A stretch of DNA of 36,628 nt from positions 1 through 36,628 of the forward strand of contig JAIBJM010000020.1 in the NCBI GenBank assembly GCA_020029535.1. Reading direction: 5' to 3'. How positions within the stretch are numbered: the first letter of the stretch is position 1; each line of letters starts with the position of its first letter. The notes below the pieces were generated by a model. That model saw only the letters and a program-made list of their open reading frames with translations. It was not told where the DNA came from and did no database searches. The DNA is from Gammaproteobacteria bacterium (GTDB taxonomy: Bacteria; Pseudomonadota; Gammaproteobacteria; Steroidobacterales; Steroidobacteraceae). The translations under genes were made by a program, and so were the position numbers. Positions 20,655-36,628 of the stretch are shown here, in pieces.

Positions 20655-20660
20655 GGCGGC

Positions 20661-21451: not shown

Positions 21452-21463
21452 CCTTGGAGAACA

Positions 21464-21479: not shown

Positions 21480-21767
21480 GTATCACCCACTGCATGGTCT
21501 GTCGGTTTGCGAAACCCCGATTTGAGTCACTATCAGTGAGCATTTCGGGCTTATCTCAAACCGCCTGCGCGGATAGCACATGGACCGATACGGAGCGATG
21601 ACGGTCGTCAGATGCCTGAAAACAGAATGTATATACAAAATGTTTTTCCGCGTCCGGCGAAACTCGGCAGCCCGGCGTTCAGTGTGGCGCGCCCGAGTGC
21701 ATCGCCATCAATATACGGGCTTCGCCACGACTCAGACCGCAACGTGTCACCAGCTGCGGATAGCAAG
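21480..21767. other. Non-coding junction before oriIS-like repeat A
   Basis: No convincing gene is seen. It contains a 15-mer, CTGCGCGGATAGCAC at 21565-21579, that recurs exactly at 34925-34939 beside the alkA fragment. Just before it, TCAAACCGCCT matches the terminal bases of repeats E and F. GCGGATAG at 21756-21763 and CAAG at 21764-21767 directly precede repeat A. An AT-rich patch lies near 21630-21650. Confidence 0.4.
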
Positions 21768-21931
21768 TTCAAACCCCCGTTGCTCAGCCTACTTCATCCG
21801 GTTTGTTTCGCAGAACGGGCCTGATTTCCGGCCGCAGGCTATCGTCGGTGAGCGGCGCCGATCAACTGAAGGTCGCGAACATTGCCTGCGGGCTATCGAA
21901 TCCTCCCAGCAGCAGCGTTTAATCCCGCATG
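21768..21931 (-). repeat. oriIS-like repeat, copy A
   Basis: First of six related copies, drawn on the minus strand because that is the transposase strand in reference copy F. It shares the run ATCAACTGAAGGTCGCGAA, the segment ATCGAATCCTCCCAGCAG and CGTTTAATCCCGCATG with F, D and C. The outer end starts TTCAAACC and carries the variant CGTTGCTCAGCCT block also found in D, not the block of E and F. It directly follows CAAG (21764-21767), matching the tetranucleotide targets known for IS91. Homology stops at 21931; no transposase sequence follows. Confidence 0.75.
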
Positions 21932-22113
21932 TCAGCCCGCCCGAGCGGCATGTCCGAACCGGCGGAACGTCGAACGATGGCGGCGCAAATCCGGACTCTT
22001 GCCGTAGACCGGGTCGCACTCGCGGAAAGAAGAATCACAGCCGATTCCCGTCGGGAGCTGAACATGCCCGGCCCGCAGTCGGCGCCCGGTATGCGCCCCA
22101 ACCAGGAGACATC

Positions 22114-23532
22114 ATGCAAAACTCACCCTATGCTCTGACCATCGACGGCCAGCGCGTCTTCTCCGACGAGACGATGCAGGCCATCAATCCGGCGACGGAA
22201 CTGCCCATCTGCTCTTTCCCTCTCGCTTCTCGGGTGCACCTCGAATCTGCCGTGTCGGCTGCCCAGCGGGCGTTCCGCGCTTGGTCGGCAACCGCGCTCG
22301 CGGAGCGCCAAGTCATGGTGGCGGCGCTGGGCGATCTGATCGAGCAGAACCAGGAAGCTTTCATCAATCTGCTGATCACGGAGCAGGGCAAGGGACGCGC
22401 GGCGGCCGAATGGGAAATCGGCGGCTCGATCTACTGGTGCCGGGAGATCGCCAAGCAGTCGCTTGAAGAAGAACTGATCTCGCGCAACGGCGACGACGAG
22501 ATCGTCACCCGCTACACGCCGATCGGCGTGGTGGGCGGCATCACGCCCTGGAACTTCCCGCTGCTGCTGGCGGTGTGGAAGATCGCGCCGGCGCTGGTGG
22601 CCGGGAACACGGTGGTGCTCAAGCCCTCTCCCTACACGCCGCTGTGCACGCTGTGGTTCGGCGAGCTCGCCCAGACGGTGCTGCCGCCCGGCGTGCTCAA
22701 CATCCTGTCGGGCGGCAACGAACTCGGCCAGTGGATGACCGAGCATCCGGCGATCGGCAAGATCTCGTTCACCGGATCCACCGCGACTGGCCGGCAGGTA
22801 ATGCGCAGCGCGGCGACGAACCTCAAGCGCCTGACGCTTGAGCTGGGCGGCAACGACCCGGCGATCGTGTTGCCCGACGTGGACGCGAAGGCGATTGCGA
22901 AGGACCTGTTCTGGGCCTCGTTCGCCAACAGCGCCCAGTTCTGCGTTGCCTGCAAGCGGCTGTACGTGCATGAGGACGTGTACGACGACGTGGCGCGCGA
23001 ACTCGTGGCGTATGCCAAGACCGTGAAGATGGGCAACGGCCTGGAAGCTGGTGTCGAACTCGGCCCGCTGCAGAACAAGATGCAGTACGACAAGGTCTCC
23101 GGGCTGCTGGCGGACAGCCGCGCCGCCGGCTTGAACTTCCTGCTCGGCGGCACGCCCATGGAGAAGCCGGGCTACTTCGTCCCCGTGACCCTCATCGACA
23201 ATCCGCCCGAGGACGCCCGCTGCGTGGTGGAGGAAGCCTTCGGCCCGGTGCTGCCGCTGCTGAAGTACCGCGACGTCGAGGACGTGGTCGCGCGCGCCAA
23301 CGACACGCACTACGGACTGGCCGCCTCGGTTTGGGGCAAGGATCTCGCCACCGCCGAACGCGTGGCGCGTCGGATCGAGGCCGGCACGGTGTGGATCAAC
23401 CAGGTTCACGTTTTCGCGCCCAACATCGCCTTCGGCGGACACAAGCAGTCGGGCGTGGGCATCGAGAACTCACTGCACGGCCTGTCCGAGTACACGAACA
23501 TGCAGACCGTGATGCGCAAGGCCCTGGCATGA
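22114..23532 (+). CDS. NAD(P)-dependent aldehyde dehydrogenase
   Basis: An ALDH-superfamily enzyme that oxidises an aldehyde to its carboxylic acid. The frame is open from 21580, but AGGAG at 22104-22108 precedes ATG 22114 and the family fold starts there, giving 472 residues. Visible landmarks are TPWNFPLLLAVWKIAPALVA (cofactor/substrate tunnel), FTGSTATGRQVM (Rossmann loop), general-base Glu243 in LELGGNDP and nucleophile Cys277 in QFCVAC, 34 residues apart as is usual. EEAFGPVLPLL and GGHKQSGVG lie towards the end. Overlap with the downstream CoA ligase (ATGA) implies the acid product is passed on. The substrate class is not readable; benzaldehyde-, betaine- and succinate-semialdehyde-type enzymes all fit. 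It lies just inside repeat A. Confidence 0.92.
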   Translation: MQNSPYALTIDGQRVFSDETMQAINPATELPICSFPLASRVHLESAVSAAQRAFRAWSATALAERQVMVAALGDLIEQNQEAFINLLITEQGKGRAAAEWEIGGSIYWCREIAKQSLEEELISRNGDDEIVTRYTPIGVVGGITPWNFPLLLAVWKIAPALVAGNTVVLKPSPYTPLCTLWFGELAQTVLPPGVLNILSGGNELGQWMTEHPAIGKISFTGSTATGRQVMRSAATNLKRLTLELGGNDPAIVLPDVDAKAIAKDLFWASFANSAQFCVACKRLYVHEDVYDDVARELVAYAKTVKMGNGLEAGVELGPLQNKMQYDKVSGLLADSRAAGLNFLLGGTPMEKPGYFVPVTLIDNPPEDARCVVEEAFGPVLPLLKYRDVEDVVARANDTHYGLAASVWGKDLATAERVARRIEAGTVWINQVHVFAPNIAFGGHKQSGVGIENSLHGLSEYTNMQTVMRKALA

Positions 23533-25082
23533 ACGGCAACGCCACCTCGTTCCAGGCCTCGGTCGGCGGCCTCGTGCGCGACGCCGCCCGCCGCTTCGGC
23601 AGCAAGACGGCGCTGGTCTTCGAGGACCAGCGCTGGAGCTTCGCGCAACTCGACGAGGCCTCGTCGAAAGTGGCTGCGGGGCTGCGGGCGCTCGGGCTGG
23701 GAGCCGGCGACACGGTCGCGCTGTACTCGCCAAACTGTCCCGAGTGGATGATCGGGTACTACGCGGTCTTGAAGCTGGGCGGCATCGTCAACCCGCTGAA
23801 CCTGATGCTCACGCCGGAGGAGGCCGCCTACGCGATGAACGATTGCGGCGCGGTGGCGGTGGTCGGTTCGAGCGACCGCATCGCCGCGCTGGCCCCCGTG
23901 CGCGGGCAGACCGGGCTGAAGCATTGCGTGACCTACGGCGGCCCGGCGCCCGAAGGCGCGCGCGACTTCCGCAGCCTGCTCGACGGCGGGGTCGGCGGGT
24001 CGGCGAGCTTCCCGGTCGAAGGCATCGAGCTCGACGCGCCCTGCACCGTCGCCTACACCTCAGGCACGACGGGCCACCCCAAGGGCGCGCTGCTCACCCA
24101 CCGCTCGATCCTGATGAACACGGCGATGACCGCGACGATGCATGTACGTACCGCCGCCGACACCGTGGTCTCCGCGCTGCCGTGCTCGCACGTCTACGGC
24201 AACGTCGTCATGAACGCGGCCATCGCCCACGGCATGACGCTGGTGCTGCACAAGGCATTCGACGTGGAGTGCGTGCTCGCGAGCATCCAGGCCGAGCGGG
24301 CGACCATGCTCGAAGGCGTGCCGACGATGTACATGTACATCCTCGACCATCCGAAGCTGGGCCAGTACGACCTGTCTTCGCTGAGCCGCTGTACGGTGGG
24401 CGGGCAGACCATGCCCGAGGCCAAGATGCGCCAGGTCGAGGCCGCGTTCGGTTGCCCGCTGATCGAGCTCTGGGGCATGACCGAACTCGGCGGCCTGGGC
24501 ACGACGCACAGCGCCTACGGCCCGCCGCGCCTGGGCTCGATCGGCGTGGCGCTGCCGCACCTGAGCGCGCGGATCGCGGCCACCGACGGCACCAACCGCG
24601 TGCTGCCCGTCGGCGAGGTCGGCGAACTGCAGATCCGCGGGCCGGTGACGATGCGCGAGTACCTCGGCCGCCCCGACGCCACCAAGGAAACTCTGGAGCC
24701 CGACGGCTGGCTGCACACCGGCGACCTGGCCCGACAGGACGAAGACGGCTACATCTACGTGGTCGACCGCCTGAAGGACATGGTCATCACGGGCGGTTTC
24801 AATATCTATCCTGCCGAGCTGGAGCGGGTGATCGCCGAGCACCCGGACGTCGCGATGGTGGCGGTGAGCAGTATTCCAGACGAAGCCAAGGGCGAGCTGG
24901 CCAAGGCCTACGTCGTGCCGCGCAAGGGCGTCGCGCTGGACTTCGAGGCGCTCGAACGGCACTGCCGTTCGCGCCTGGCCGCCTACAAGGTGCCGCGGGC
25001 CTGGCAGGCCGTGGACGACCTGCCCAAGACCAGCAGCGGCAAGATCCTGCGACGCAAGCTGCGCGAACTGGGCAACGGCTGA
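23529..25082 (+). CDS. Acyl-CoA synthetase (AMP-forming, ANL superfamily)
   Basis: Activates a carboxylic acid through an acyl-adenylate to its CoA thioester. The 517-residue protein has the core motifs in order: A3 YTSGTTGHPKG near 176-186; A4 region ALPCSHVYGN near 217; A5 ELWGMTELGG near 313; A7 GWLHTGDLARQDEDGY near 392, with hinge DRLKDMVITGGFNIYPAELE; and A10 SSGKILRRK near 503-511 with the catalytic Lys. Length suits medium/long-chain or aromatic acid CoA ligases. The start ATG overlaps the ALDH stop (ATGA), so the pair forms an aldehyde to acid to acyl-CoA module. Base composition is very GC-rich, unlike the receptor and Rieske genes that follow. Confidence 0.93.
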   Translation: MNGNATSFQASVGGLVRDAARRFGSKTALVFEDQRWSFAQLDEASSKVAAGLRALGLGAGDTVALYSPNCPEWMIGYYAVLKLGGIVNPLNLMLTPEEAAYAMNDCGAVAVVGSSDRIAALAPVRGQTGLKHCVTYGGPAPEGARDFRSLLDGGVGGSASFPVEGIELDAPCTVAYTSGTTGHPKGALLTHRSILMNTAMTATMHVRTAADTVVSALPCSHVYGNVVMNAAIAHGMTLVLHKAFDVECVLASIQAERATMLEGVPTMYMYILDHPKLGQYDLSSLSRCTVGGQTMPEAKMRQVEAAFGCPLIELWGMTELGGLGTTHSAYGPPRLGSIGVALPHLSARIAATDGTNRVLPVGEVGELQIRGPVTMREYLGRPDATKETLEPDGWLHTGDLARQDEDGYIYVVDRLKDMVITGGFNIYPAELERVIAEHPDVAMVAVSSIPDEAKGELAKAYVVPRKGVALDFEALERHCRSRLAAYKVPRAWQAVDDLPKTSSGKILRRKLRELGNG

Positions 25083-25095
25083 CGGCCCCCCCGGA

Positions 25096-25163
25096 AGGAG
25101 GTCGCCTGAGTGCGCTATTCGCGGCTTCCGGCTGAACAGGAAAAATCAGAAATTCGCGGATAG
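25096..25163 (+). pseudogene. Beheaded third gene of the ALDH-ligase operon
   Basis: Fourteen bases after the ligase stop there is a strong ribosome site (AGGAGG at 25096-25101), eight bases and then GTG 25110. Translation gives only MRYSRLPAEQEKSEIRG before TAG at 25161, and the last codons fall inside the 3' end of the convergent receptor gene. The simplest reading is that another operon gene began here and was replaced within about 20 codons by the receptor segment. A chance ribosome-site match is the alternative. Confidence 0.4.
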
Positions 25164-27530
25164 CCCCATACCATATGTGCGAGGAGAGCCTACTGTGAGG
25201 ATCGTGAATCCCCCGACGAACGGGCTTGCCTGGCCGCTGTTGTAGACCGGTTCGTTCGTGATGTTGCGGACGAATGCCCGGACTGACAGCTTCGAGTTTG
25301 GAGTGCGATAGGCCAGAACGGCGTCAAATGTTGTGTGCGCCTTGTCTCTCAAAGAAGGCAGGAAGTCGACGGAAAGCCACCTGGCAGATACGTAGTTCAT
25401 GCTTCCCTTCGCCTCGATGTCGCCGCCGTTGGGGAGTACGAAGCGGTGAACATAGCTGGCATTCGCGGTCCATTTCGCTGCTTTGTTCAGTTGCCTGCCG
25501 CTGCAATCGATGAGGGAGGTGTTCACCTTCCCCGCAACGGGAGTGACCGAGCATCCCGTCGTGAGGCCCTCTGTTGCCAGCGGATCTCCGGTGGCCGTGT
25601 TGAGGGTCGGCTGCTCGAACGTGAAGCTGTCATATATGGAATGGAGATATTCCACGCTGGCGGTCAGCGTATCGTTCGGCGCGAGCCTGGCGATCAGGTC
25701 CGTGCTCAGGCCATATTGGGTGGCCTTGCCGGCGTTGATGTATGTCTGCGCCACATTGCCCAGCGAATCGATCGTGACGCGGTTTTCCTGGTGATCGTCG
25801 TATTTCCACAGGAAAGCCTCGAGGTTGAGCTGCAGCCTGTTGTTGAAGAAACGATTGCGCGAACCCAGCTCATAGGCCAGCAGCGTTTCCGGCTTGTAGC
25901 TGTCGGCTTCTCCAACATCCGTTGGGCCTGTGACCGTCGCGGTCGGAGCGAGATTGGCTGAAAATCCACCCGCCTTGAAACCCGTGGCGGCTGTGGCATA
26001 GAGCATGTTCGACGGCGACAGGTCGAACTCCATGCCCGCCCGCCAGTTCGTCTCTCGGAAGGTCTTTTTGCCCGCGAAGGTTTCGGCTACGCATCGTGCA
26101 TCGATTGGCGTGCATTGCCCCGGGACGTAGGACAGGAAGTCCAGGCCCGGATTGTTGGCATAGGATGTGCCGCCAAGCTCGCGCCGATCGCTCGTATAGC
26201 GCAGGCCGGCGATCACCCGGAGCGGGTCGGAGATGGAATAGGTCGCCTGGCCGAATGCAGCGTAGCTGCGCGTTTCTATGCGCAGGTCGATCGAACTGTT
26301 CTGCAACGAACCGCTGAGAACATCGAATGCTGACGTCTGCGCTTCATTGTAGAAGAAACCGCCGATGACCCACTTCAGCGCGCCATCGCTTTGGCCCAGC
26401 CGTGCTTCGACCGACGTCTGCTTGGATGTCTCGTCCTTCACGTTGTATTCAAAGGTGGGGTAAAGCGTGTAATCGAGGCTTGCGGACCGGTAGGCAGGAA
26501 TGACGGTCAACGTCGCAAAATCCAGCTCATAATCGAGCTGGGCCCGCACCCCCCAGAAATGATTGTCCGTGCCGCGCTCGCCCGTGCCATCCGTCTTCGC
26601 CAGCTGCGTGAAGCCGGTAGGGCAGGCGCCCTGATAGGGATACAACGCGAACGACGGGAAGACCGCTGTGGGTACGCACTGTCCGGCGGCCGCGGATGCA
26701 CCGTTGAAGACAGCGATTCCGGCAGAATCGGTGTTCGATGTCCATGGACTCTTCCCATCGATCTTCACGGCGGCGCCGCCGCCGATGCCGCCGACGTGGG
26801 TATAGTCTCCGCCGAGCACGATCGACAGCTGATCGTCGGGCTGCCAGAGCAGCTGCAGACGGGCCGATTGCTGGCGCTGGTCGTCCCAGCCGTTGCTCAG
26901 AAAGCCGTCCCGCGTCGTCAGCTGGAATGCGCCGCGTATCGCCGTGGTGGCGGACAGCGGAAGGTTGACCGCGCCGTCGAGAGTGGCCTTCTGGTAGTTG
27001 CCGACTTCGAGGTTGCCATGTGCGGAGTGCTCTCCGAGGATCGGTTTGTTGGTGATGACGTTGACGGCGCCACCAGATGCGTTGCGGCCGTACAGTGTGC
27101 CCTGCGGTCCCTTGAGCACCTCCACGCGCTGGATATCATGGAAATGGCCTTCGATCGCGCTCGAACGGCCGATCGAGACGCCATCGACGCTGAATGCCAC
27201 GGCCGGATTCGTGATCGGCGTCGTTCCCGTATCACCGACACCGCGGATATAGATCTGGGTTGCCGCGCCCTGCTGGCCGACTTGCACCCCTGGAACGAGT
27301 CCGGCCAGATCCTTCACCTGCGTCGTACCAGCCGACCGCAACTGTTCGCTCGACAGCACCGATATCGGCACGGACGCTTTTTGCACTGATTCCTCGCGGC
27401 GTTGCGCCGTGATGGTGATCTCGTCGATCGTCGCGGTACCATCGGTGTCCTGCGCATCCTGCGCCCATGCCGGCATCGATTGAACCAGCGCCATCACGAT
27501 GCAGCACGACAGTCCATATATCTCTTTCAT
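25146..27530 (-). CDS. TonB-dependent outer-membrane receptor
   Basis: A 794-residue receptor for an unknown substrate, of the kind abundant in sphingomonads and related aromatic degraders. A signal peptide ends at AWAQ, and the TonB box IDEITITAQRREE near 35-47 follows. The plug contains RSAGTTQVKDLAGLVPGVQV, IYIRGVGDTG and VEVLKGPQGTLYGRNASGGA. The barrel includes YATAATGFKAGGFSANL and ends GLSANF with terminal Phe. GGGGAG stands about nine bases before the ATG. It lies 158 bases downstream of the Rieske gene on the same strand, so it probably imports that enzyme's substrate. The DNA is visibly less GC-rich than the core block and the ligase gene, which suggests separate ancestry. Confidence 0.9.
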   Translation of the reverse strand: MKEIYGLSCCIVMALVQSMPAWAQDAQDTDGTATIDEITITAQRREESVQKASVPISVLSSEQLRSAGTTQVKDLAGLVPGVQVGQQGAATQIYIRGVGDTGTTPITNPAVAFSVDGVSIGRSSAIEGHFHDIQRVEVLKGPQGTLYGRNASGGAVNVITNKPILGEHSAHGNLEVGNYQKATLDGAVNLPLSATTAIRGAFQLTTRDGFLSNGWDDQRQQSARLQLLWQPDDQLSIVLGGDYTHVGGIGGGAAVKIDGKSPWTSNTDSAGIAVFNGASAAAGQCVPTAVFPSFALYPYQGACPTGFTQLAKTDGTGERGTDNHFWGVRAQLDYELDFATLTVIPAYRSASLDYTLYPTFEYNVKDETSKQTSVEARLGQSDGALKWVIGGFFYNEAQTSAFDVLSGSLQNSSIDLRIETRSYAAFGQATYSISDPLRVIAGLRYTSDRRELGGTSYANNPGLDFLSYVPGQCTPIDARCVAETFAGKKTFRETNWRAGMEFDLSPSNMLYATAATGFKAGGFSANLAPTATVTGPTDVGEADSYKPETLLAYELGSRNRFFNNRLQLNLEAFLWKYDDHQENRVTIDSLGNVAQTYINAGKATQYGLSTDLIARLAPNDTLTASVEYLHSIYDSFTFEQPTLNTATGDPLATEGLTTGCSVTPVAGKVNTSLIDCSGRQLNKAAKWTANASYVHRFVLPNGGDIEAKGSMNYVSARWLSVDFLPSLRDKAHTTFDAVLAYRTPNSKLSVRAFVRNITNEPVYNSGQASPFVGGFTILTVGSPRTYGMGLSANF

Positions 27531-27688
27531 AGTCGGTCTCCCCAGAGATTTAGAGTTATTGCAGTGAGTTCATCGTCGAGAATCACGAGGCCATCGTCGG
27601 TGCTTGGTCTTCAGGAACAAACAGCTTATTTGAGCGCTCTTTTCCCCCTTCGCTCCTGATGAGGGCCGTTACCCTCTTGCACGGTCGC

Positions 27689-28669
27689 TCAGTCCAGCGG
27701 CGCCGCACGCGGCAGACGATCGAAATAGTCGAGCAGCATGGCTAGCCCGCGATCCGTCTTGACCAGCTTCGCCTCGCCACGCGGGCGGAAGCGGATTGTC
27801 TTGAGGATCCCGGCATCCTCCGCATTCAGTTGGTAACCGAAGCCGATAAAGGCGTCGATCGTCCGCTCCGCCTGCTGCAGGCCGGCCTCATCCCCATCCG
27901 CGGGCTTCATGACGGCGAAGACGGCAAACTGGTGGTGCCAGTAGGGGCGCGGCGAATTGGACGCCACCATCGTGAAATGCCCCGGTGCAAAGGGCTGCAT
28001 GTCGCGCATCGAGAAAGCGTTCTGATAGTAGACCTTGCCCCCGCCGGTCGGATGCAGCACATCGAAATCGAACCTGATCGATGTCGGCTCGACGACATAA
28101 TTGCGCCCCTCCGCATCGTGCGGGATATTGTGGACGAACTTCACATGCTCGAAGTCGAGCGCGTTGGTAATCGGGACCCAGCTTTCGACGTTGTGCAGCC
28201 CCATGTCGATCGCCCGGAAGACGACATCGTCCTCGGTAACGCCGATGAGCGAGGGCACTTCGCCGATCGGCTCGCGCCCGTTGAAGACCCAGATGAGCCC
28301 CCAGCGTTCGGCGACCGGATAATTCTGGATGCTTGCCGTCGAGAGGGCCTTGCCGAGTGACGGAACATGCGTGCAGGCACCGCCGGCGCTGTACCGCCAG
28401 TGGTGATAGGGGCAGCGGACTTCACCCTCCACCAATTCCCCCTGCGACAGGTCGGCGCCCAGATGTGCGCAATAGGCCGTCTGCACGACCGCCGCCCCAT
28501 CGGGACCGCGATAGGCGATGATCCGCGAATTCAGGAAGTCGATGCCCTTGACCTTGCCGGGCTCGAGATCGGTCGACAGGCAAACCGGATACCAGGATTG
28601 GAAATAGGCACCGTCCTGCCAATAGCGCAGGTTGATTCCCTCGGTCACCGTCTCCGCATTAGTGGCCAT
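27689..28669 (-). CDS. Rieske non-heme iron oxygenase, alpha subunit
   Basis: The 326-residue oxygenase component uses electrons from a reductase to hydroxylate or O-demethylate a ring compound. The Rieske cluster ligands are visible: Cys67 and His69 in AYCAHLGADLSQG, Cys86 and His89 in VRCPYHHWRY. The mononuclear iron site has Asp172, His175 and His180 in NALDFEHVKFVHN. The short length resembles vanillate O-demethylase/phenoxybenzoate- or sterol-type single-component oxygenases rather than the 450-residue alpha-beta dioxygenases. GGGGGAA lies six bases before the ATG. No ferredoxin, reductase or beta subunit is nearby, so electrons must come from elsewhere. A possible -35 TTGACT is at 28729-28734 with a weak -10. 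Confidence 0.92.
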   Translation of the reverse strand: MATNAETVTEGINLRYWQDGAYFQSWYPVCLSTDLEPGKVKGIDFLNSRIIAYRGPDGAAVVQTAYCAHLGADLSQGELVEGEVRCPYHHWRYSAGGACTHVPSLGKALSTASIQNYPVAERWGLIWVFNGREPIGEVPSLIGVTEDDVVFRAIDMGLHNVESWVPITNALDFEHVKFVHNIPHDAEGRNYVVEPTSIRFDFDVLHPTGGGKVYYQNAFSMRDMQPFAPGHFTMVASNSPRPYWHHQFAVFAVMKPADGDEAGLQQAERTIDAFIGFGYQLNAEDAGILKTIRFRPRGEAKLVKTDRGLAMLLDYFDRLPRAAPLD

Positions 28670-28738
28670 CGTTTATTCCCCCGTAATTTTTTTAGTTGGT
28701 CAGTAGAGTAGTGCCGCCTCATCAGCTCAGTCAAATCT

Positions 28739-28764
28739 TTCATATGTCGAGTTTTACACATGAA
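28739..28764. promoter_or_regulatory. Imperfect dyad upstream of the Rieske gene
   Basis: Arms TTCATATG (28739-28746) and CACATGAA (28757-28764) are inverted repeats matching at 7 of 8 positions, with a 10-base centre. They lie about 70-95 bases upstream of the Rieske start and just upstream of the candidate TTGACT -35 box. Arm size and spacing suit a dimeric regulator. No regulator gene is adjacent. Confidence 0.4.
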
Positions 28765-28823
28765 GTGAAACCAGCAGCAGCGATCCACCGAACCGGAGAG
28801 GCGGTTGTGTCTTCCACTGCACG

Positions 28824-29030
28824 GACTTGATGACCATAGCCCGCTGATTCACACCGCGGGCAGGACGGGGTTGCGCCCACGCGGGATTAAACACGGATGC
28901 TGGGAGGATTCGACAGGTCGCAGGCAATGTTGGCGACCTTCAGTTGATCGCCGTCACTCATCGACGCTACCCTGCGGCCGGACACAAGGTCCGATCTGCG
29001 AAAGACACTGGCGAGAAGGCGGTTTGAAAA
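28824..29030 (+). repeat. oriIS-like repeat, copy B (inverted relative to the others)
   Basis: The reverse complement of this stretch matches copies D, E and F almost throughout. It has the terminal TTTCAAACCGCC block, CGCCAGTGTCTTTCGCAGAT, the hairpin CGGAC-CTTGT-GTCCG, ATCAACTGAAGGTCGC and, at the inner side, AATCAGCGGGCTATGGTCAT. Homology ends at CATCAAG, just short of the transposase stop codon. It is the only copy whose outer end points right, and that end stops 28 bases before the NmrA-type gene. Confidence 0.78.
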
Positions 29031-29058
29031 TTATCCGCCCTTGGACCGAAGCTGCTCC

Positions 29059-30018: not shown

Positions 30019-30044
30019 GTGCAAAGTCGTTTGCCAATACATTA

Positions 30045-30105
30045 GCCTGCGGGCTATCGAATCCTCCCAGCAGCAGCGTTTAACCCCGCATGGACGCAGC
30101 CCGCC
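30045..30105 (-). repeat. oriIS-like repeat, copy C (internal fragment)
   Basis: Only about 60 bases remain: GCCTGCGGGCTATCGAATCC, CAGCAGCAGCGTTTAACCCC and GCATGGACGCAGCC, best matched by copies A and D. The outer end with the hairpin is missing, so it cannot act as an origin. It is fused directly to a short coding tail at 30108. Confidence 0.7.
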
Positions 30106-30107
30106 CC

Positions 30108-30194
30108 GGCAAGCGACAGGTGGCGGAGATGCTGGTCAACCACGCCGTGCTCAAGCACTCCTACGCCGACTATGCGGCCGAAGCGGCGCGGTAA
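30108..30194 (+). pseudogene. Orphan C-terminal coding tail after repeat C
   Basis: In phase from the end of repeat C, 28 codons read GKRQVAEMLVNHAVLK followed by HSYADYAAEAAR and TAA. The composition looks like a real helical protein terminus rather than random sequence, but I do not recognise the family. There is no start codon or upstream domain. I read it as a gene cut at its 5' side by the repeat. Confidence 0.35.
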
Positions 30195-30209
30195 GGCGCG
30201 CTCAGCGCG

Positions 30210-30581
30210 TTACGAGGCCTTCGCGGTGCTCTGCTTGATGAGGCTTTCAGCGGGAATGCCAAATCTTGTATGCAAGCCTTCAATCATGCGCAAAGTCAGC
30301 GGGCGTTTGCGACTGAGCACTTCGTAAACCCTGTTCTTGCGCCCGATGACCGGTTCCAGGTCCTTGACCGTCAAACCCGACTGCTCCATCCGGAACTTGA
30401 TCGCTTCAACGGCGTCCGGAAGATCCATTGGGAAGTGCCTGCGCTCATAGGCTTCGACAAGCGTCGTCAGCACGTCCAGCCGATCCCCCTCGGGTGTGTT
30501 GATTTTCGCAGTCATCAGGGATTCGATTTCCTTGAGGGCAGCGCGGTAGTCCGCCTTGGTTCTGATGGGCCTGATATGCAT
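30210..30581 (-). CDS. higA: HigA-type antitoxin (COG5499-like, HTH)
   Basis: A 123-residue antitoxin of a type II toxin-antitoxin pair. The N-terminal part (MHIRPIRTKADYRAAL, ERRHFPMDLPDAVEAIKFRM) is the HigA signature that contacts the toxin. The C-terminal half is an HTH (LTVKDLEPVIGRKNRVYEVL and then LTLRMIEGLHTRFGIPAESL) that binds the operator. I start at ATG 30581; the longer frame runs into the toxin gene. The toxin gene is upstream with a 10-base gap, the toxin-first order usual for higBA. The protein should neutralise HigB and repress the operon. Confidence 0.88.
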   Translation of the reverse strand: MHIRPIRTKADYRAALKEIESLMTAKINTPEGDRLDVLTTLVEAYERRHFPMDLPDAVEAIKFRMEQSGLTVKDLEPVIGRKNRVYEVLSRKRPLTLRMIEGLHTRFGIPAESLIKQSTAKAS

Positions 30582-30591
30582 GGCGTGTCCC

Positions 30592-30894
30592 TTAAATGGC
30601 CTGCGCGTCGATGGCATCGTACTGACGGTGTGTGCCGATGAACCGTATGTAGACGATCCTGTATGGATAGTTGATTCTCGTAACAATGCGGTACTTGTTC
30701 CCGCCGATGTTGAAAACAACGCGGCTGCCATGAAGGATGCTGGCGTTACCAAACTGCGCTTTTACGTCGCTTGGTTTCGACCAGTCCGACTTCATCACGT
30801 CCCTGTACCAGGCGAGTGTCGGTCCCTCCGCATCGCTGTACTGCGGGTGATCGTTCCAGAACGCCTTGAGCGTCGAGACAGCGATCACCCTCAT
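30592..30894 (-). CDS. higB: HigB-type toxin, ribosome-dependent mRNA interferase
   Basis: A 100-residue RelE-fold toxin of the HigB (COG4680) type, expected to cleave mRNA on the ribosome. Landmarks are the N-terminal MRVIAVSTLKAFWNDHPQ, TLAWYRDVMKSDWSKPSDVK near 26-45, VFNIGGNKYRIVTRINYP near 60-77 and IRFIGTHRQYDAIDA near the end, where HxxYD is typical. I prefer ATG 30894, with AGGA about eight bases upstream, over ATG 30903, which would touch the operator. It sits between fragments C and D of the IS91-type repeat, with its own operator intact, so the module looks functional. Confidence 0.88.
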   Translation of the reverse strand: MRVIAVSTLKAFWNDHPQYSDAEGPTLAWYRDVMKSDWSKPSDVKAQFGNASILHGSRVVFNIGGNKYRIVTRINYPYRIVYIRFIGTHRQYDAIDAQAI

Positions 30895-30905
30895 GGCTTG
30901 CATCC

Positions 30906-30924
30906 TAGTCCCAAATTGGGACTA
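30906..30924. promoter_or_regulatory. Perfect palindromic operator of higBA
   Basis: A 19-bp perfect inverted repeat, TAGTCCCAA-A-TTGGGACTA, lies 11 bases upstream of the higB start. HigA-type antitoxins bind such dyads to repress their own operon. The position covers the expected promoter and ribosome-site region. Confidence 0.75.
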
Positions 30925-31291
30925 AGACAATGACTGGAGGGCTTTGTGACCATATTCATACGGCGTAAAATTTGCTCACCATGAGGGCAGTCGTAGCTGC
31001 AGGGCAACCTGCAAAGGCGATGTCTTTGGCGAGATTCGTCGGATTGCTTGGGAGCGAGTGGCGCGCTCAGATCAGCGGCAGCCTGTCGATCTTCGCCGCG
31101 CAGATGAAATCGTTTTCCGACAGCCCCTGGATGGCGTGTGTGGAATAGCGCACGCGGACGAGATCGCTGAACGAGTGCTTGCGCATGCAACCCCGATCGA
31201 CGCGACCTGCGCGGTCATCAGGCGGAGGAATCACCTCTTGGCGTACGAAATTCTGCGCGGGATCGTGTATGAGGCCATACGAGGCGGCTAG
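30925..31291. other. Region without a confident gene between higBA and repeat D
   Basis: Two overlapping short frames are present: a plus-strand one from GTG 31058 to 31291 (77 codons, ending [15 protein letters not shown]) and a minus-strand one at 31067-31300. Neither matches a family I recognise, neither has a clear ribosome site, and the second runs into repeat D. The stretch may be a decayed gene. Confidence 0.35.
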
Positions 31292-31295
31292 TAAG

Positions 31296-31516
31296 TTCAA
31301 ACTCCCGTTGCTCAGCCTGCTTCATCCGGTTTGTTTCGCAGATCGGACCTTATGTCCGGCCGCAGGGTATCGTCGATGAGCGACAGCAATCAACTGAAGA
31401 GCTCGTGGGCTATCGAATCCTCCCAGCCGCCGCGTTTAACCCCGCATGGACGCAGCCCCGCCCCGCCCACTGCATGAATCAGCGGGCTATGGTCATCAAG
31501 TTCAAATCAGACTGAG
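31296..31516 (-). repeat. oriIS-like repeat, copy D, with the last transposase codons
   Basis: One of the two most complete copies. The outer end is TTCAAACTCCCGTTGCTCAG, like copy A, next to TAAG. It has the hairpin CGGAC-CTTAT-GTCCG and ATCAACTGAAG, then a deletion of about 13 bases relative to F. The inner part is AATCAGCGGGCTATGGTCAT. The innermost bases on the minus strand read LSLI-stop (31502-31516), identical to the end of the IS91 transposase beside copy F. So D is an origin end cut just inside the transposase gene and fused to a receptor fragment. Confidence 0.8.
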
Positions 31517-31528
31517 CCCCAGCATCGC

Positions 31529-31975
31529 ATTCCCACCGACGTGACGTGGACCAAGCTCACCTGGCGCGCAGCGCTGGACCACAAGTTCAGCGATGATGTG
31601 CTGGGTTACGTGTCGTACAACCGTGGTTTCAAAAGCGGCTCGTTCAATCCGTTTACCTGGACCAACCCACCCACCAATCCGGAGGTACTGGATGCTTACG
31701 AGCTCGGGCTCAAGACCGGATGTGGACTTCGCTGCCACGCCAACTGAACGTCTGAGCATTCAAGGCGGATTCGAGCTCCTGCATGCGCGGTATACGGACT
31801 TCCCCAGAGCACCTTGCACGGTGCCAGCCACAATCAATAGCACGGCAGTGCCGCGAGTGCTCGGCGGCTCAGTAACCCAAGGCGACATCCGCTCACTTCC
31901 GATTCCGAATATCCCGAAGCCGGCGAGCCCGCCGGAATCTGCAGCAGTTCAGTCTCCGCCCTGGCCGACATAGGG
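31529..31975 (+). pseudogene. TonB-dependent receptor fragment, frameshifted
   Basis: Two pieces of a receptor barrel lie in different frames. The first (31529-31735) reads VTWTKLTWRAALDHKFSDD then VLGYVSYNRGFKSGSFN and VLDAYELGLKT, classic of TonB-receptor barrels. The second, from about 31720, reads VDFAATPTERLSIQGGFELL and HARYTDFPRAPC, close to the C-terminal part, then drifts out of homology. Signal peptide, plug and most of the barrel are missing, and an internal deletion shifts the frame. It begins immediately after repeat D and overlaps the end of the MscS gene. It is unrelated in wording to the intact receptor at 25-27 kb. Confidence 0.8.
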
Positions 31976-32761
31976 CGCCTGCGCAAATCGGACATTCATT
32001 TCGCGCAGCGCCTGCTTGCCGCGAATGGTGAGATCTGTAACGAAGTTGAATTGCTCACGGCTCTCGCGCGCGTAGGCCTTCAGCTTGTAGTGCGTGCCCC
32101 AGAGCTGCTCCCGCACCACCACGCCGATCTTCGTCTCGGCGTTGCGGAATCCGCTCGTCTCCGCGACCAGGACGAGCCGGCGCCGCACCAGCTCCGCGTC
32201 GTGGTCCTGGTGAAGGTAGAAATGCGCCACGCAGAGTACGCTGCGGCCGCCGCTGGTCGCATTCGTAATGATCGAGGACCACAGTCGCGAGTTGGGGATG
32301 ATCACCTCATCGTCATCCGCGGTGACAATATGCGTGGCGCGCACTCCGATCAGCTTGACCTCACCGTAGACGCCGTCCACATTGATCCAGTCACCCGGCT
32401 GGTAAGGCCCCTCAATGATCGTCACCACGCCCGCGACCAGACTGCTGACGTAGTCCTTCAGGACAAAGGCCAGCGCCAGACTCACGCTGGCCAGGATGGC
32501 CACGACGTTCTGAAACGTCGGCTCGACCAGTATCCGCACGATCACCACCACAGCGGCGATACCGACCGCGAGTCGCAGCAGCGGAATCAGGCGCAGGATC
32601 GGCAATCGCAGACGCTGCGGTCCAAACTTCGCCACCCGGTGCAACACCGTGCGCACGGCCGCAGCGAGCAGCCAGGTCAGAAGGATCACGCCCGCAATCA
32701 GAATCACGTCGTTGAGTTCGAGGTTGCGCAGGATGCCGAGGTCAGTGGTGGGTTCGTTCAT
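31949..32761 (-). CDS. MscS-family small-conductance mechanosensitive channel
   Basis: A 270-residue inner-membrane channel that opens under membrane tension to relieve osmotic stress. Transmembrane segments lie at about 18-37 (VILIAGVILLTWLLAAAV), 55-80 and the pore-lining helix near 85-115 (VAILASVSLALAFVLKDYVS and SLVAGVVTII). The cytoplasmic beta domain follows (YQPGDWINVDGVYGEVKLIG, DDDEVIIPNSRLWSSIITN), with the NxxI-type signature PNSR. The C-terminal alpha-beta region is complete, and length matches compact MscS proteins (about 280). It looks intact although flanked by a pseudogene and repeat E. Confidence 0.9.
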   Translation of the reverse strand: MNEPTTDLGILRNLELNDVILIAGVILLTWLLAAAVRTVLHRVAKFGPQRLRLPILRLIPLLRLAVGIAAVVVIVRILVEPTFQNVVAILASVSLALAFVLKDYVSSLVAGVVTIIEGPYQPGDWINVDGVYGEVKLIGVRATHIVTADDDEVIIPNSRLWSSIITNATSGGRSVLCVAHFYLHQDHDAELVRRRLVLVAETSGFRNAETKIGVVVREQLWGTHYKLKAYARESREQFNFVTDLTIRGKQALREMNVRFAQAPYVGQGGD

Positions 32762-33025
32762 TTCAACTCCTCAAAACCTCGAGATTGAGTAAACCGAGTT
32801 TGATGATTGGAATGCGGCGCCGAGATGGATGATCACGAACACTGACCCAGGTTCAGACTCCTCCCGTGAAGGGTCATCTGCCGTTATTCGCCTATTTCCT
32901 TTGCACCACGGATTGTTTGATGGACGCGGCGATGTCGGCCCGACGTCACCCCTGCTTCAGTAGCACTGGGCATTAGAGTCTGTCCGGCATAGTAACGGCC
33001 TTGATGGCCAACTGCTTTGAGGATA
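32762..33025. other. Non-coding stretch before repeat E
   Basis: No gene, hairpin terminator or repeat beyond short matches was seen. The last bases before repeat E are GAGGATAG, resembling the GCGGATAG next to copy A. Confidence 0.35.
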
Positions 33026-33182
33026 GGACTTTCAAACCGCCTTCCTCGCCAGTGGCCTTCCTCGCCAGTGTCTTTCGCAGATCGGACCTTATGTCCGGCC
33101 GCAGGCTACCGCCGATGAGCGGCAGCGATCAACTGAAGGTCGCGAAACATTGCCCGCGGGCTGTCGAATCCTCCCAGCAGCT
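33026..33182 (-). repeat. oriIS-like repeat, copy E, with internal 16-bp duplication
   Basis: It starts GGACTTTCAAACCGCC, identical to F. A tandem duplication of a 16-bp unit (CTTCCTCGCCAGTGGC, then CTTCCTCGCCAGTGTC) follows. Then come the hairpin CGGAC-CTTAT-GTCCG, ATCAACTGAAGGTCGCGAAA, the palindrome GCCCGCGGGC and AATCCTCCCAGCAG. Homology stops at 33182. The outer neighbour is ATAG rather than CAAG. Confidence 0.75.
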
Positions 33183-33185
33183 GCC

Positions 33186-33222
33186 ATGGATCAGGATCAA
33201 CCTGGGTGGCTGCCCCAAGCGC
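33186..33222 (+). pseudogene. Possible inverted scrap of IS91 transposase 3' coding sequence
   Basis: The 16-mer GATCAGGATCAACCTG (33189-33204) equals, in opposite orientation, transposase codons at 36470-36485 (DQDQP). Flanking bases are also similar: CTGCC on the left and CTGCCCCAAGCGCG on the right, versus CTGCCTGAAGCACGAGCG. It lies inverted with respect to the adjacent repeat E, suggesting a second, oppositely oriented element or a local inversion. The match is short. Confidence 0.35.
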
Positions 33223-33225
33223 GGA

Positions 33226-34812
33226 CTATGCAATGCGATCCGGGATCCAGTTTCCGTGGAAATCCAGCGGCACATGATGGTCCAGCTTGACGCGCGCCGC
33301 CGGCTCACCATCGAACGCGCGCGCATCGAGGATGATCAATTCGCTGACGTTTCGTCGCGGGTCCTGCCAAAGCGCAAGCACCCAGCCGTGATCTTCACTT
33401 TCAGCCCGAGGGTGAGGAACGAAGACAGATTCGCCTGCGATCAAATCTTTCCGACCGGCGGGGTGTTGAAACCGAGTCTCGCCCGTCGCGTGGTCGTGCT
33501 TGGCCAGGCAATTGAAGCCTCTTGTCCCGGGAGCCGGCAAATGGGCTGCCGGCATGTAGGCATAACGATACTTCTGTCCCAGAAGCGTTTCGTTGGGGCG
33601 GGCGAATTCCCCGGAGAAGTCGCCAATCCGCCGGTACTTGATCGATCCTTTCTTGAGGTTGATCGTGAAACGCCAGATTTGCGATGGCCCGTATGCCGAG
33701 GCGCCATCGAGCTGCGGTACCAACGAAAAGGAAGGCCTGGGACTGGCAGGATCCGGCGCAACGAGGCCGGAATCTATGATCGTATCCTCACCGTCCTGGT
33801 ACGCGTTGAGGAAGTGGCCGAGCCTGTATTGCGAATCTTCCGGGCGCAACCAGGTCGCCTTGCCTGTACGACGGTCGACGAACAGGATGGTGTTATTGCG
33901 ACCTTCCTTGGGATTGACGAACCACGAGCTCTTGCCCTGGGGAATCCGATCATCGGCCCATGGGCGCCATTGGAGCGGAGTGAAGAAGAAAATGTAATGT
34001 TGCGGGGTAAAAATGAAATCGTGATTCCAGGGCGTTGAAGGCATGGCCACGCGATGCTTCGATTTGACTGCGCCGCTGCCCGGATCGGCGGCGAAGCATT
34101 CGAGAAACTTTTTCTCGTTGTTCAGAGCATAGAGCAGCCATTCGTTCCCCGCGAAGTCGAAATGCGGGTGCGCCGTCAGCATGCCGTCGACCTGGCCATC
34201 GAAGTTGAAGCGTCCCAAGGTCTCCAGCGTGGTCGGCTCCAACTCCCAGTAGTGAGGCCCAGCTTCGTGCAGCGCCAATACCCGCTTGCCCAGCCGGATC
34301 ACATTTACCCCTGCCACCACCTTGATCTTCGGCGCTCCCGCCGGCAGTGGCAGCTGCGGCTTGTCGCTCTGTCCGTAGATACCGTTGTAAAGCGCCTTTC
34401 CCGCCGCTCGCTCGACCGTCAGACCTTCGGTCTCGACCAATCGATTGCGGTAGGAGGCTTTACCATCCTTCAATCGGAACGCATGTACCATGCCGTCACC
34501 GTCGAACCAGTGAAACCGACTGGGATCGAGCGGCTCGAAGCGCTGGTTGGTTCCGGTCCGATACAGCGTCCCGCTCAGCTCCGGGGGAATTCGGCCCTCG
34601 ACGCGCAGATCGTCGATGACGATCTGCTCATTGGAAAGCGGCTCGTATGGACCCTGCAAAAACGGACTGCGTGCCGGATCAGACGCTCCCGCAGGTCGGG
34701 GCGCCGCGGGTACGACCGGTTCTGCGGCAGCAACCAACCCTGCATTGCCCACGGCTGCACCAATGACCGCGGCGCTGCCGAGAATTTCCCGTCGCGTCCA
34801 ATTATCGTTCAT
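33226..34812 (-). CDS. Tat-exported carotenoid oxygenase / lignostilbene dioxygenase family protein
   Basis: A 528-residue Fe(II) dioxygenase of the carotenoid cleavage family (RPE65/NOV/lignostilbene dioxygenase type), which splits a C=C bond into two carbonyls. Residues 7-11 (RREIL), followed by a hydrophobic AAVIGAAVGNAGLVAAAE segment, form a Tat signal, implying export after folding. The four iron His are visible: LTAHPHFDF near 214, WNHDFIFTPQ near 263, GHFLNAYQDG near 333 and LDFHGNW near 518. N-terminal ELSGTLYRTGTNQRFEP and WFDGDGMVHAFRL are family landmarks. The start is ATG 34812 with GGGGA upstream. Export is unusual and suggests an extracytoplasmic substrate, such as stilbenes, apocarotenoids or polyisoprene. 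It could feed aldehydes to the island's ALDH. Confidence 0.9.
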   Translation of the reverse strand: MNDNWTRREILGSAAVIGAAVGNAGLVAAAEPVVPAAPRPAGASDPARSPFLQGPYEPLSNEQIVIDDLRVEGRIPPELSGTLYRTGTNQRFEPLDPSRFHWFDGDGMVHAFRLKDGKASYRNRLVETEGLTVERAAGKALYNGIYGQSDKPQLPLPAGAPKIKVVAGVNVIRLGKRVLALHEAGPHYWELEPTTLETLGRFNFDGQVDGMLTAHPHFDFAGNEWLLYALNNEKKFLECFAADPGSGAVKSKHRVAMPSTPWNHDFIFTPQHYIFFFTPLQWRPWADDRIPQGKSSWFVNPKEGRNNTILFVDRRTGKATWLRPEDSQYRLGHFLNAYQDGEDTIIDSGLVAPDPASPRPSFSLVPQLDGASAYGPSQIWRFTINLKKGSIKYRRIGDFSGEFARPNETLLGQKYRYAYMPAAHLPAPGTRGFNCLAKHDHATGETRFQHPAGRKDLIAGESVFVPHPRAESEDHGWVLALWQDPRRNVSELIILDARAFDGEPAARVKLDHHVPLDFHGNWIPDRIA

Positions 34813-34940
34813 CACGAAATCCCCGGTTCGCCTTCAATTTGAACGAATGACTATAGCCAACGAGTTCGCCACCAGCAATGTAACAGCGGCGTGGCAGCAG
34901 CGCGCATTGCCGACCGTGAGTCCACTGCGCGGATAGCACC

Positions 34941-35024
34941 GTGCCCTCCCTCCGCAATGCCAGGAAGCTCAGCGATGAAGAGTTGGTCACCCGCCTGACT
35001 GAGGTCCGCGGGATCGGCGGATAG
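34941..35024 (+). pseudogene. alkA-like DNA-3-methyladenine glycosylase fragment
   Basis: In the plus frame 34941-35021 reads PSLRNARKLSDEELVTRLTE followed by VRGIGG. The LSDEELxxRLTxVRGIG stretch is the helix-hairpin-helix entrance of the AlkA/HhH-GPD glycosylases, normally continued by RWTAEM and the catalytic Asp region. The homology stops at VRGIG, four to seven bases before the IS110 transposase stop codon. The missing continuation is not found on the other side of the IS. The rest of the gene upstream is also absent. Confidence 0.65.
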
Positions 35025-36075
35025 ATTCTATGTCGAGACGCAAGCGATTTCGGGTGCCACCGGGACGAACCGGATATCTTTCCGCAACAGGGTGAAGCTG
35101 ACCTTGGCCAGTTTGCGGCTCAGCGCAACCAGCGCGGCGGTGCTACTCATTCCACGCTCCCGCAACCGCAGATAGTACGGCGCCCACTGAGCGCTGCGTC
35201 GCCCCTGCATCGCCGCGTTGTACAGCAGGCGACGCACTTCCCCGTCGCCCTTCTTGGTCAGCTTGCAGCGCCCCTGCCAGCGCCCGGACTGCTTGACCCG
35301 AACGTCCAGCCCCAGGAACGCCACGAACGCATCGACGCTGCGGAACTGACCTCGTTGCCAACTGGCCACCAGCGCCATCGCCGTCAGCGGACCGACGCCG
35401 GGGATCCCCTGGCAACGCTCGATCCATTCGGCCCAGCCCAGTTCCTGTGCCTGCTTGAGCAGGGCGCGATCAAGCTTGCGGATCATCTGCCCGCACTGCT
35501 GCACGAGTGACTCGGCATCCTCCTGCAGCAACCCCAGTCCGCTCAGGGACTGGTTCAACTGAACCTTGCAACGTACCAGCGCCGCACGGCGCTTCAGCAG
35601 CTGCCAGAACCGCTGTTGTCCGGGGATCATGGGCTCCCATGCCCGCAACTCACCGATCTCCCGCTCCAGGAACCGCGCCAGAAGTTGCGCATCCTGCGCG
35701 TCCGTCTTCGCCCGCCGACCCAAGCCAGCCCGGTAATGCGACAGACGGTACGGATCGATCAGGTACACCTCGTGTCCATGCGCAACGGCGGCCTCGGCAA
35801 GTCCCAGGTGATAGCGATTGGTCGGCTCCAGCGCCAATTTCAACTTGCCACTCAGGCCATCCAGCCACGTCTTGATCGCACTCGCATCGTTGCTGATCCA
35901 GTACGAGCGCTCGCTGTGGTACTCGAACAGATCCAGCCGGTCCTTGCACACATCAACGCCAACGATGACGTCCTCTACTTCCGGTGCCATGATTGCCTCC
36001 GTTGTGTCGAGCAACACGCCGGGGACTCACCTTGCGCAACCTTGCCAAACATCGGCCGCGCCAACGGCTAGATTC
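35019..36075 (-). mobile_element. IS110-family insertion sequence (ends tentative)
   Basis: It contains one transposase gene and no terminal inverted repeats, as expected for IS110. A near-identical direct repeat, GGATAGATTC (35019-35028) and GGCTAGATTC (36066-36075), brackets the gene. The right copy may mark one end, but the enclosed 1.06 kb is short for the family, and the true end may lie as far as 36205. IS110 elements encode a bridge RNA in a non-coding end. The minus-strand leader at 35991-36205 has a stem CCTCA...TGAGG and is the place to look. Confidence 0.5.
35028..35990 (-). CDS. IS110-family transposase (DEDD recombinase)
   Basis: A 320-residue transposase. The RuvC-like DEDD residues are visible: Asp13 in VGVDVCKDRLD, Glu55 in LALEPTN, and Asp97 and Asp100 in KTDAQDAQLLA. 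A coiled segment follows, then the Transposase_20 domain near 195-290 with IPGVGPLTAMALVA, FVAFLGLDVRVKQSG and RRLLYNAAMQ. I start at ATG 35990, with GGAGG five bases upstream, rather than at 36017. The frame is intact, so the element may be active. It sits directly against an alkA fragment on its 3' side. Confidence 0.93.
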   Translation of the reverse strand: MAPEVEDVIVGVDVCKDRLDLFEYHSERSYWISNDASAIKTWLDGLSGKLKLALEPTNRYHLGLAEAAVAHGHEVYLIDPYRLSHYRAGLGRRAKTDAQDAQLLARFLEREIGELRAWEPMIPGQQRFWQLLKRRAALVRCKVQLNQSLSGLGLLQEDAESLVQQCGQMIRKLDRALLKQAQELGWAEWIERCQGIPGVGPLTAMALVASWQRGQFRSVDAFVAFLGLDVRVKQSGRWQGRCKLTKKGDGEVRRLLYNAAMQGRRSAQWAPYYLRLRERGMSSTAALVALSRKLAKVSFTLLRKDIRFVPVAPEIACVST

Positions 36076-36209
36076 CTCATCGGCGCTTCGGTGAGGGGTG
36101 GGGACGATCTCTATCCGAGTCGGTGCCAGTTCGGCCCGATGAAATTCAATGTCCCTCCCACCCCGGCGCCCTCGATACTGACTATCTCGGGCGGGAAGAA
36201 CCATACAAG
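36076..36209. other. Stretch between IS110 and repeat F
   Basis: No recognised gene. On the minus strand it gives a possible leader for the IS110 transposase, with a CCTCA...TGAGG stem-loop spanning about 36075-36096. It ends with CAAG at 36206-36209, the tetranucleotide directly abutting the outer end of repeat F. Confidence 0.35.
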
Positions 36210-36419
36210 GACTTTCAAACCGCCTTCCTCGCCAGTGTCTTTCGCAGATCGGACCTTATGTCCGGCCGCAGGGTATCGTCGGTAAGTGGCAGCGATCAAC
36301 TGAAGGTCGCGAAACATTGCCCGCGGGCTGTCGAATCCTCCCCGCATGCGCGTTTAATCCCGCATGAGCACAACCCCGCCCCGCCCACTGCATGAATCAG
36401 CGGGCTATGCTCATCGAGT
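36210..36419 (-). repeat. oriIS end of an IS91-family element, reference copy F
   Basis: This is the non-coding end just downstream of an IS91-type transposase stop codon, and so identifies the other five copies. Reading inward from the outer end: GACTTTCAAACCGCC, CGCCAGTGTCTTTCGCAGAT, hairpin CGGAC-CTTAT-GTCCG (36250-36264), ATCAACTGAAGGTCGCGAAA, palindrome GCCCGCGGGC, then AATCAGCGGGCTATGCTCAT before the transposase stop. The outer base lies against CAAG, i.e. CTTG outward, as expected for IS91 insertion. In IS91 and ISCR elements the replication origin lies at this end. Confidence 0.78.
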
Positions 36420-36628
36420 TCAAATCAGGCTGAGCTGAAAAGGGGGCGCTCGTGCTTCAGGCAGCAGCTCAGGTTGATCCTGATCGGCAGCCGCACGCTC
36501 CAGATGCGACAGGATGCGCGCGATCAGTGCGGGCTCCTCGATGCTGGCCAGAATGCGCAGCTTGCCGCCACAGCGCATACAGCCCTGGATCTCGATGCCG
36601 AACACGCGCTTGAGTCGTCGCGCCCAGT
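36420..36628 (-). CDS. IS91-family transposase, C-terminal part (runs off the window)
   Basis: The last 68 codons of a Y2/rolling-circle-type transposase, 5' part outside the window. The wording WARRLKRVFGIEIQGCMRCG followed by GKLRILASIEEPALIARILSH is the conserved C-terminal block of IS91/ISCR transposases, with a CxxC pair. It ends RAPPFQLSLI. The catalytic HUH and Tyr motifs would lie beyond the right edge. The last four residues plus stop are also preserved in repeat D, tying the scattered repeats to this transposase. Confidence 0.82.
   Translation of the reverse strand, partial: WARRLKRVFGIEIQGCMRCGGKLRILASIEEPALIARILSHLERAAADQDQPELLPEARAPPFQLSLI

What the first reader, a model, noticed from the sequence alone, without database searches (positions are those of the whole stretch)
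21768..36433. Six scattered copies of an IS91-type origin end partition a 15-kb accessory region
Copies A (21768-21931), B (28824-29030, inverted), C (30045-30105), D (31296-31516), E (33026-33182) and F (36210-36419) share long identical runs. Only F is next to a transposase gene, and it sits exactly where IS91/ISCR elements have oriIS. Between successive copies lie different functional genes. This is what repeated rolling-circle, one-ended events, or recombination between their products, would leave. It suggests an ISCR-like engine building catabolic islands on a chromosome outside the well-known resistance setting.
Basis: partly seen in the sequence, partly recalled or inferred. Interest (0 to 1): 0.8.

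Follow-up and report, generated by a model that had tools for sequence, protein, structure and literature searches.

The report
Scattered solo ends of ISCR-like elements
A bacterial chromosome is sprinkled with short leftover origin ends of a jumping gene related to those that spread antibiotic resistance, nearly all pointing the same way relative to DNA replication, which hints at how such elements may choose where to land.

Summary
The six repeats are real. They are origin-side (oriIS) ends of an ISCR-like element of the IS91 superfamily: F runs into the 3' end of a Y2_Tnp-type transposase at the window edge (36423-36626, minus strand), and the outer terminus TTTGAA-n-CTATCC also closes related elements in other genomes. 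The complete transposase gene left of F is an unrelated IS110. The repeat is not confined to the island: 36 listed matches on 18 contigs, none in 39 relatives (DNA search with F). The outer end is mostly constant, the inner end varies. A relative carries an element plus two solo ends (224 and 255 bp, 99.6% identical), as shown experimentally for IS801 (PMC3189936, abstract and passages). The region is accessory: yqgE adjoins ruvX in 14 of 14 congeners. That the element built the island is not shown. New: in 33 of 36 copies the transposase-sense strand is the GC-skew leading strand of the contig, but relatives show no clear bias.

The parts
21758..21965 (+). Copy A: solo origin end, outer terminus intact (GGATAG on + strand), inner end truncated
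28812..29036 (-). Copy B: solo origin end, opposite orientation to the other five; outer terminus at 29036
30040..30122 (+). Copy C: internal fragment of the origin region, no outer end
31286..31517 (+). Copy D: solo origin end, outer terminus with one change (GGCTAG)
33021..33184 (+). Copy E: solo origin end, outer terminus intact
33180..33224 (-). Short inverted piece of the transposase 3' region directly behind copy E
36209..36422 (+). Copy F: origin region of the ISCR-like element; last bases of the outer terminus differ (no GGATAG)
36423..36628 (-). C-terminal part of the ISCR-like transposase, cut by the contig end; continues on contig C62 through an exact 93-bp overlap
20655..36628 (.). 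Accessory region inserted between yqgE (ends 20654) and ruvX (contig C62, from about 1208)

Best explanation
The repeats are solo (transposase-less) oriIS-side ends of a chromosomal family of ISCR-like rolling-circle elements of the IS91 superfamily. Shown: the repeat spans the stretch of some 215-230 bases between the transposase stop and a conserved outer terminus; many copies share that terminus but differ in inner end and flanks; a relative holds an element with two near-identical solo ends. Inferred: a HUH transposase nicks at oriIS, the displaced strand is released before the proper ter end, and the short origin-first fragment is joined to new DNA (one-ended or aborted transposition); later deletion, inversion and recombination made further fragments. 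Inferred, weaker: the strand bias means that the fragment is joined to DNA made single-stranded at replication forks. The island holds six copies because it is accessory DNA, with a decayed element at its ruvX edge; that the element assembled the island is not shown.
For: Four own copies (F, C91, C75, C95) run from the repeat into a Y2_Tnp transposase frame. The terminus motif TTTGAA-n(3-9)-CTATCC occurs at 25 distinct places among the loci held (6 own, 19 in related genomes); at 13 of those 19 it lies 214-285 bases behind a transposase match. Inner ends of 17 truncated own copies spread from consensus position 81 to 243. G086:C10 carries a transposase with an open frame of 518 codons, its origin end, and two solo ends of 224 and 255 bp at 99.6% identity with different flanks on both sides. 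Precedent: 229-, 360- and 679-nt right-end fragments of IS801 from one-ended transposition (PMC3189936, abstract and passages). Strand bias: 33 of 36 copies, contig sign-flip p 2e-4 one-sided.
Against: PMC3189936 itself ascribes most genomic IS801 fragments to reorganisation, and rearranged copies are seen here too (C82:43183-43486 internally deleted; E with an inverted piece). No IS91/IS801-type target tetranucleotide at the outer ends; only a GC preference (21 of 25). F and C75:14075 lack the last terminus bases. Clustering of inner ends is weak (p 0.012 and 0.044). No own transposase is complete in the assembly. The strand bias is not borne out in relatives: 37 of 72 loci; 37 of 56 by raw skew (p 0.02) but 24 of 44 by gene-balanced skew. 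In C95 the 10 kb that holds both copies has the opposite skew sign to the whole contig, so by local skew two more copies would be exceptions.
Confidence: 0.65

Rival explanations
1. The solo copies are remnants only: full ISCR-like elements inserted and were later cut down by deletion and recombination, the origin end surviving.
For: Internally deleted element at C82:43183-43486; inverted piece behind E; copies mostly 78-95% identical; IS801 fragments in genomes judged mostly reorganisations (PMC3189936, passages).
Against: Two solo ends at 99.6% identity to the full element beside it in G086 leave little time for decay; most truncated copies keep the outer rather than the inner part.
Confidence: 0.22
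2. Island-building: repeated one-ended events or recombination between origin ends brought in the catabolic genes of this region, as ISCR elements are thought to do with resistance genes.
For: The region is inserted between yqgE and ruvX, an ISCR-like element sits at its ruvX edge, and A and B face outward around aldehyde dehydrogenase to Rieske.
Against: Copies occur on 17 other contigs; no duplicated or captured gene was found, though only the Rieske gene was searched.
Confidence: 0.1
3. The repeat is a MITE, REP, attC or structured-RNA family unrelated to the transposase.
For: Genome-wide short repeats with one orientation within contigs; a weaker 60-nt core recurs without ends.
Against: Continuity with Y2_Tnp transposases; terminus shared with other ISCR-like elements; variable inner ends; folding of F no better than shuffles (DNA, z 0.84 and -0.14); no Rfam match in the window.
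Confidence: 0.03

Closest known systems
ISVsa3/ISCR2-type elements (NCBIfam ISCR_clade_Ia)
   Same: Transposase of the relative G086: best NCBIfam match, 586 bits, 61% identity to plasmid copies annotated IS91 family or ISVsa3. A fetched plasmid copy has TTCTTCCTATACG some 250 bases behind its transposase, like our TTnCTATCC. That ISVsa3 equals ISCR2 is recalled.
   Different: Score below the model's cut-off of 925; chromosomal, no resistance gene seen; dozens of solo ends in one genome.
IS801 (IS91 family) of Pseudomonas syringae and its right-end fragments
   Same: Short fragments with a constant right (origin) end and no transposase, 229, 360 and 679 nt (PMC3189936, abstract and passages).
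   Different: IS801 fragments end in defined tetranucleotides and few are genuine in genomes; here there are many, with a GC preference only, and a strand bias.
IS200/IS605 elements and Tn7
   Same: Orientation that follows host replication (PMC5371812 and PMC8944449, passages).
   Different: Different transposases and ends; the likeness is limited to the bias, seen here in one genome. PMC5371812 also says that several IS families show similar biases, without naming IS91 in the passages seen.

Membership tests
IS91 superfamily (Pfam level) | Y2_Tnp and Zn_Tnp_IS91 domains above curated cut-offs | tested here: met
   Relative G086: 120.4 and 70.9 bits; own C91 piece Y2_Tnp 50.4, own C62 piece both domains
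IS91 proper | Two catalytic tyrosines spaced as YxxxY (Y249, Y253; PMC5714925, passages) | tested here: not met
   No YxxxY in the 518-codon frame of G086; an HFH motif is present
IS91 proper / IS801 | Defined target tetranucleotide (GAAC, GGAC, CAAG, CGAC; PMC3189936, passages) next to the origin end | tested here: not met
   GC follows the terminus at 21 of 25 places, no tetranucleotide consensus by eye
IS91 proper | NCBIfam transpos_IS91 cut-off | tested here: not met
   99.4 bits against 125
ISCR clade Ia | NCBIfam ISCR_clade_Ia cut-off | tested here: not met
   586.1 bits against 925, best match of the library
ISCR/IS91 | oriIS end behind the 3' end of the transposase, terIS end before its 5' end | tested here: inconclusive
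   Origin end met; ter end seen only as conserved sequence before the transposase in some relatives, boundary not fixed
ISCR/IS91 | No target duplication; rolling-circle transposition with one-ended events | not testable with these tools
   No empty site of a single copy was compared; needs an assay
MITE or attC-like repeat | Fixed length or stable fold | tested here: not met
   Variable inner ends; fold of F not above shuffles

The most novel reading that the evidence does not exclude
ISCR/IS91-type transposition joins its origin-first fragments to single-stranded DNA at the host replication fork, so that they are laid down in one orientation per replichore. This chromosome would be a record of it: 33 of 36 fragments have the transposase-sense strand on the GC-skew leading strand, a property that the papers I saw report for IS200/IS605 and Tn7 but not for IS91/ISCR.
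Probability: 0.28. Interest if true: 0.75.

Novelty: new variant of a known kind. Interest (0 to 1): 0.5.

Why it matters
ISCR elements are linked to the spread of resistance genes, yet what DNA they target, and why truncated copies abound, is poorly known. An environmental chromosome with dozens of transposase-less origin ends, and a relative with fresh ones, is a natural record of their products. If the strand bias holds, the target substrate of IS91/ISCR transposition becomes directly testable, and the one-way alignment of copies would favour deletion or amplification of what lies between them.

Tried and rejected
I first took the transposase beside F to be the IS110 at 35028-36017 and suspected an IS110- or attC-type repeat; overturned this. 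Folding of F on both strands, Rfam on the window and a promoter/terminator scan of 36150-36628 (none found) gave nothing. DNA searches of the plasmid collection with the repeat core and with F found no match. The repeat as DNA (query F only) matched 1 of 40 genomes, the own one.

Generalising the strand bias to relatives was tried twice without success; 37 of 72 GTDB loci had positive flank skew on the transposase-sense strand (p 0.91); 8 of the 80 loci were dropped for flanks under 2,000 bases; subsets 18 of 29 (flanks of 5 kb or more) and 14 of 21 (closest); from 83 transposase matches in 33 genomes I chose stretches by eye, mostly one per contig; 60 stretches were fetched, L270, L281 and L295 (short contigs) and L308 (origin match only) were left out, 56 were scored: 37 of 56 by raw skew (p 0.02, one of several subsets looked at), 24 of 44 by gene-balanced skew (p 0.65; 12 lacked enough genes on both strands).

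Paper searches. No IS91/ISCR strand-bias report was seen in these listings or in the passages read, but most subscription papers are not held, and the 2002 survey of IS91 distribution by Garcillan-Barcia and de la Cruz, cited in PMC3189936, was not read. The 60-nt core that recurs without ends was not resolved.

Full report
OBSERVATION. The window (36,628 bases, GC 0.64) is a whole contig, C48, of a 2.87-Mb genome in 120 contigs. A, C, D, E and F lie on the plus strand, B on the minus strand. A sequence model of 12 copies lists 36 matches at E <= 0.01 on 18 contigs; only 150 of 1,860 first-look candidates were scored there, so weak copies may be missed. A DNA search with F found the repeat in none of 39 relatives, 14 of them of the same genus.

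WHAT IT IS. Four copies (F, C91:19479, C75:14075, C95:8261) continue beyond the repeat into a frame on the other strand that encodes part of a Y2_Tnp transposase. In F this is the last 206 bases of the window. The window end overlaps the start of contig C62 by exactly 93 bases. C62 carries more of the transposase, spread over two frames and with the middle of the domain missing, followed by ruvX and pyrB. The overlap is a strong but not absolute sign of adjacency, since assembly graphs also share such words at repeats. The IS110 gene left of F (35028-36017) has no second close copy in the genome (one further 32% match) and no visible part in the repeat.

THE OUTER TERMINUS. In the transposase direction the repeat ends in TTTGAA-n(3-9)-CTATCC. 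Among the loci held this occurs at 25 distinct places (6 own, 19 in related genomes; overlapping loci removed by hand). At 13 of the 19 it lies 214-285 bases behind a transposase match. GC follows at 21 of 25. The pattern was fixed beforehand, so variants (such as copy D) are not counted; F and C75:14075 lack the last bases. A plasmid ISCR2-type element has TTCTTCCTATACG at a like distance.

WHICH ELEMENT. The open frame of a relative (G086, contig VGUH01000010.1, 518 codons) matches NCBIfam ISCR_clade_Ia best, 586 bits against a cut-off of 925, and IS91 with 99 against 125. It is 61% identical to the best-listed plasmid transposases, annotated IS91 family or ISVsa3 (capped at 5,000 records). 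It has the IS91 zinc domain and Y2_Tnp and an HFH motif, but no YxxxY. I call it ISCR-like and do not file it as IS91 proper.

SOLO ENDS. Seventeen truncated own copies that I judged to retain outer sequence have inner ends from 81 to 243 of the consensus, weakly clustered (5 within 7 nt, p 0.012; 6 within 17 nt, p 0.044, against uniform placing, copies taken as independent). In G086 one contig carries the element (transposase match 90439-90927, origin end to 91189) and two solo ends of 224 and 255 bp at 99.6% identity, in the same orientation and with different flanks. So such ends arise recently. IS801 makes such right-end fragments by one-ended transposition (PMC3189936; abstract and passages), though that paper ascribes most genomic fragments to rearrangement. 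Rearrangement is seen here too: C82:43183-43486 is internally deleted, and E is followed by an inverted transposase piece.

THE ISLAND. In 14 of 14 congeners yqgE is followed by ruvX and pyrB (in L212 only the end of ruvX was recognised). Here yqgE ends at 20654 and ruvX stands on C62 behind the ISCR-like element, so about 17 kb are inserted. Near the left edge lies a half-length MFS-type frame (20858-21451). For the island's Rieske gene the best matches among 59 other genomes sampled from the family, only 3 of them congeners, are 33% (G050) and 37% (G048) identical; the own genome holds paralogues at 73% and 59%. The region is accessory and an ISCR-like element sits at one edge; nothing shows that the element brought the genes.

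STRAND BIAS. Within a contig the copies nearly always point the same way; in the relatives, 6 of 6 contigs with two or more matches to the G086 origin end agree, though contig L086 has an inverted pair of termini. Contig GC skew gives a rule: in 33 of 36 matches the transposase-sense strand has positive skew and is taken as leading. Exceptions are B and the weak matches on C67 and C118. Random flipping of contigs gives p 2e-4 one-sided; without C18, 28 of 31, p 4e-4; for matches of at least 60 bits, 23 of 24, p 5e-4. Third-position skew averaged over genes of both strands (by hand) has the sign of the raw skew in 17 of 18 contigs, C18 being near zero. The rule holds beside genes that run against the fork (19 of 23 neighbour comparisons) and with it (44 of 46); 311 of 513 ORFs lie on the leading strand.

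LIMITS OF THE BIAS. C95's two copies lie in a 10-kb part whose skew has the opposite sign to the whole contig; by local skew they would be exceptions. C40, C87 and C118 were read only over their first 20 kb. Contigs may adjoin and are not surely independent. In relatives the test is negative or weak: 37 of 72, 37 of 56 raw and 24 of 44 gene-balanced. Passages seen describe such a bias for IS200/IS605, Tn7 and, in general words, several IS families (PMC5371812, PMC8944449); none names IS91 or ISCR.

MECHANISM. Most likely transposition starts at oriIS, ends early, and the origin-first fragment is joined to new DNA. This rests on the anatomy and on IS801. That the target is the replication fork is inference from one genome.

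VERDICT. Observation confirmed. The reading as ISCR-type origin ends is right; island-building is unproven; the wide spread and the strand bias are new. The kind of element is known; massed solo ends with a strand bias are a new variant.

Noticed in passing
window 21758-29036: A and B are inverted with outer ends facing outward around aldehyde dehydrogenase, AMP-binding ligase, TonB receptor and Rieske genes, like a composite unit; B is also the one strong exception to the strand bias.
   Followed up: no
window 35028-36017: Open IS110-family (RNA-guided) transposase gene with no second close copy in the genome; its ends and bridge RNA were not sought.
   Followed up: no
window 30210-30903: HigB-type toxin gene with a partner frame of unknown family beside it, between copies C and D.
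   Followed up: no
L063 (contig C82 1500-8500) and L250 (G086:C10): An ISCR-like transposase lies near a guaA-like gene in both genomes (named from the reading frames, not by a family search): shared old insertion or a preferred site.
   Followed up: no
contigs C1, C7, C67, C87, C97: A core of about 60 nt of the repeat recurs, weakly, without the outer end or the transposase side; its origin is unexplained.
   Followed up: partly
L081 (G088:C137): A contig of 4,768 bases holds two copies of the element in tandem with a spacing of 2,707 bases, as a circle or a tandem array would give.
   Followed up: no
L086: Two termini in opposite orientation on one short contig of a relative, the only such pair seen among the relatives.
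   Followed up: no
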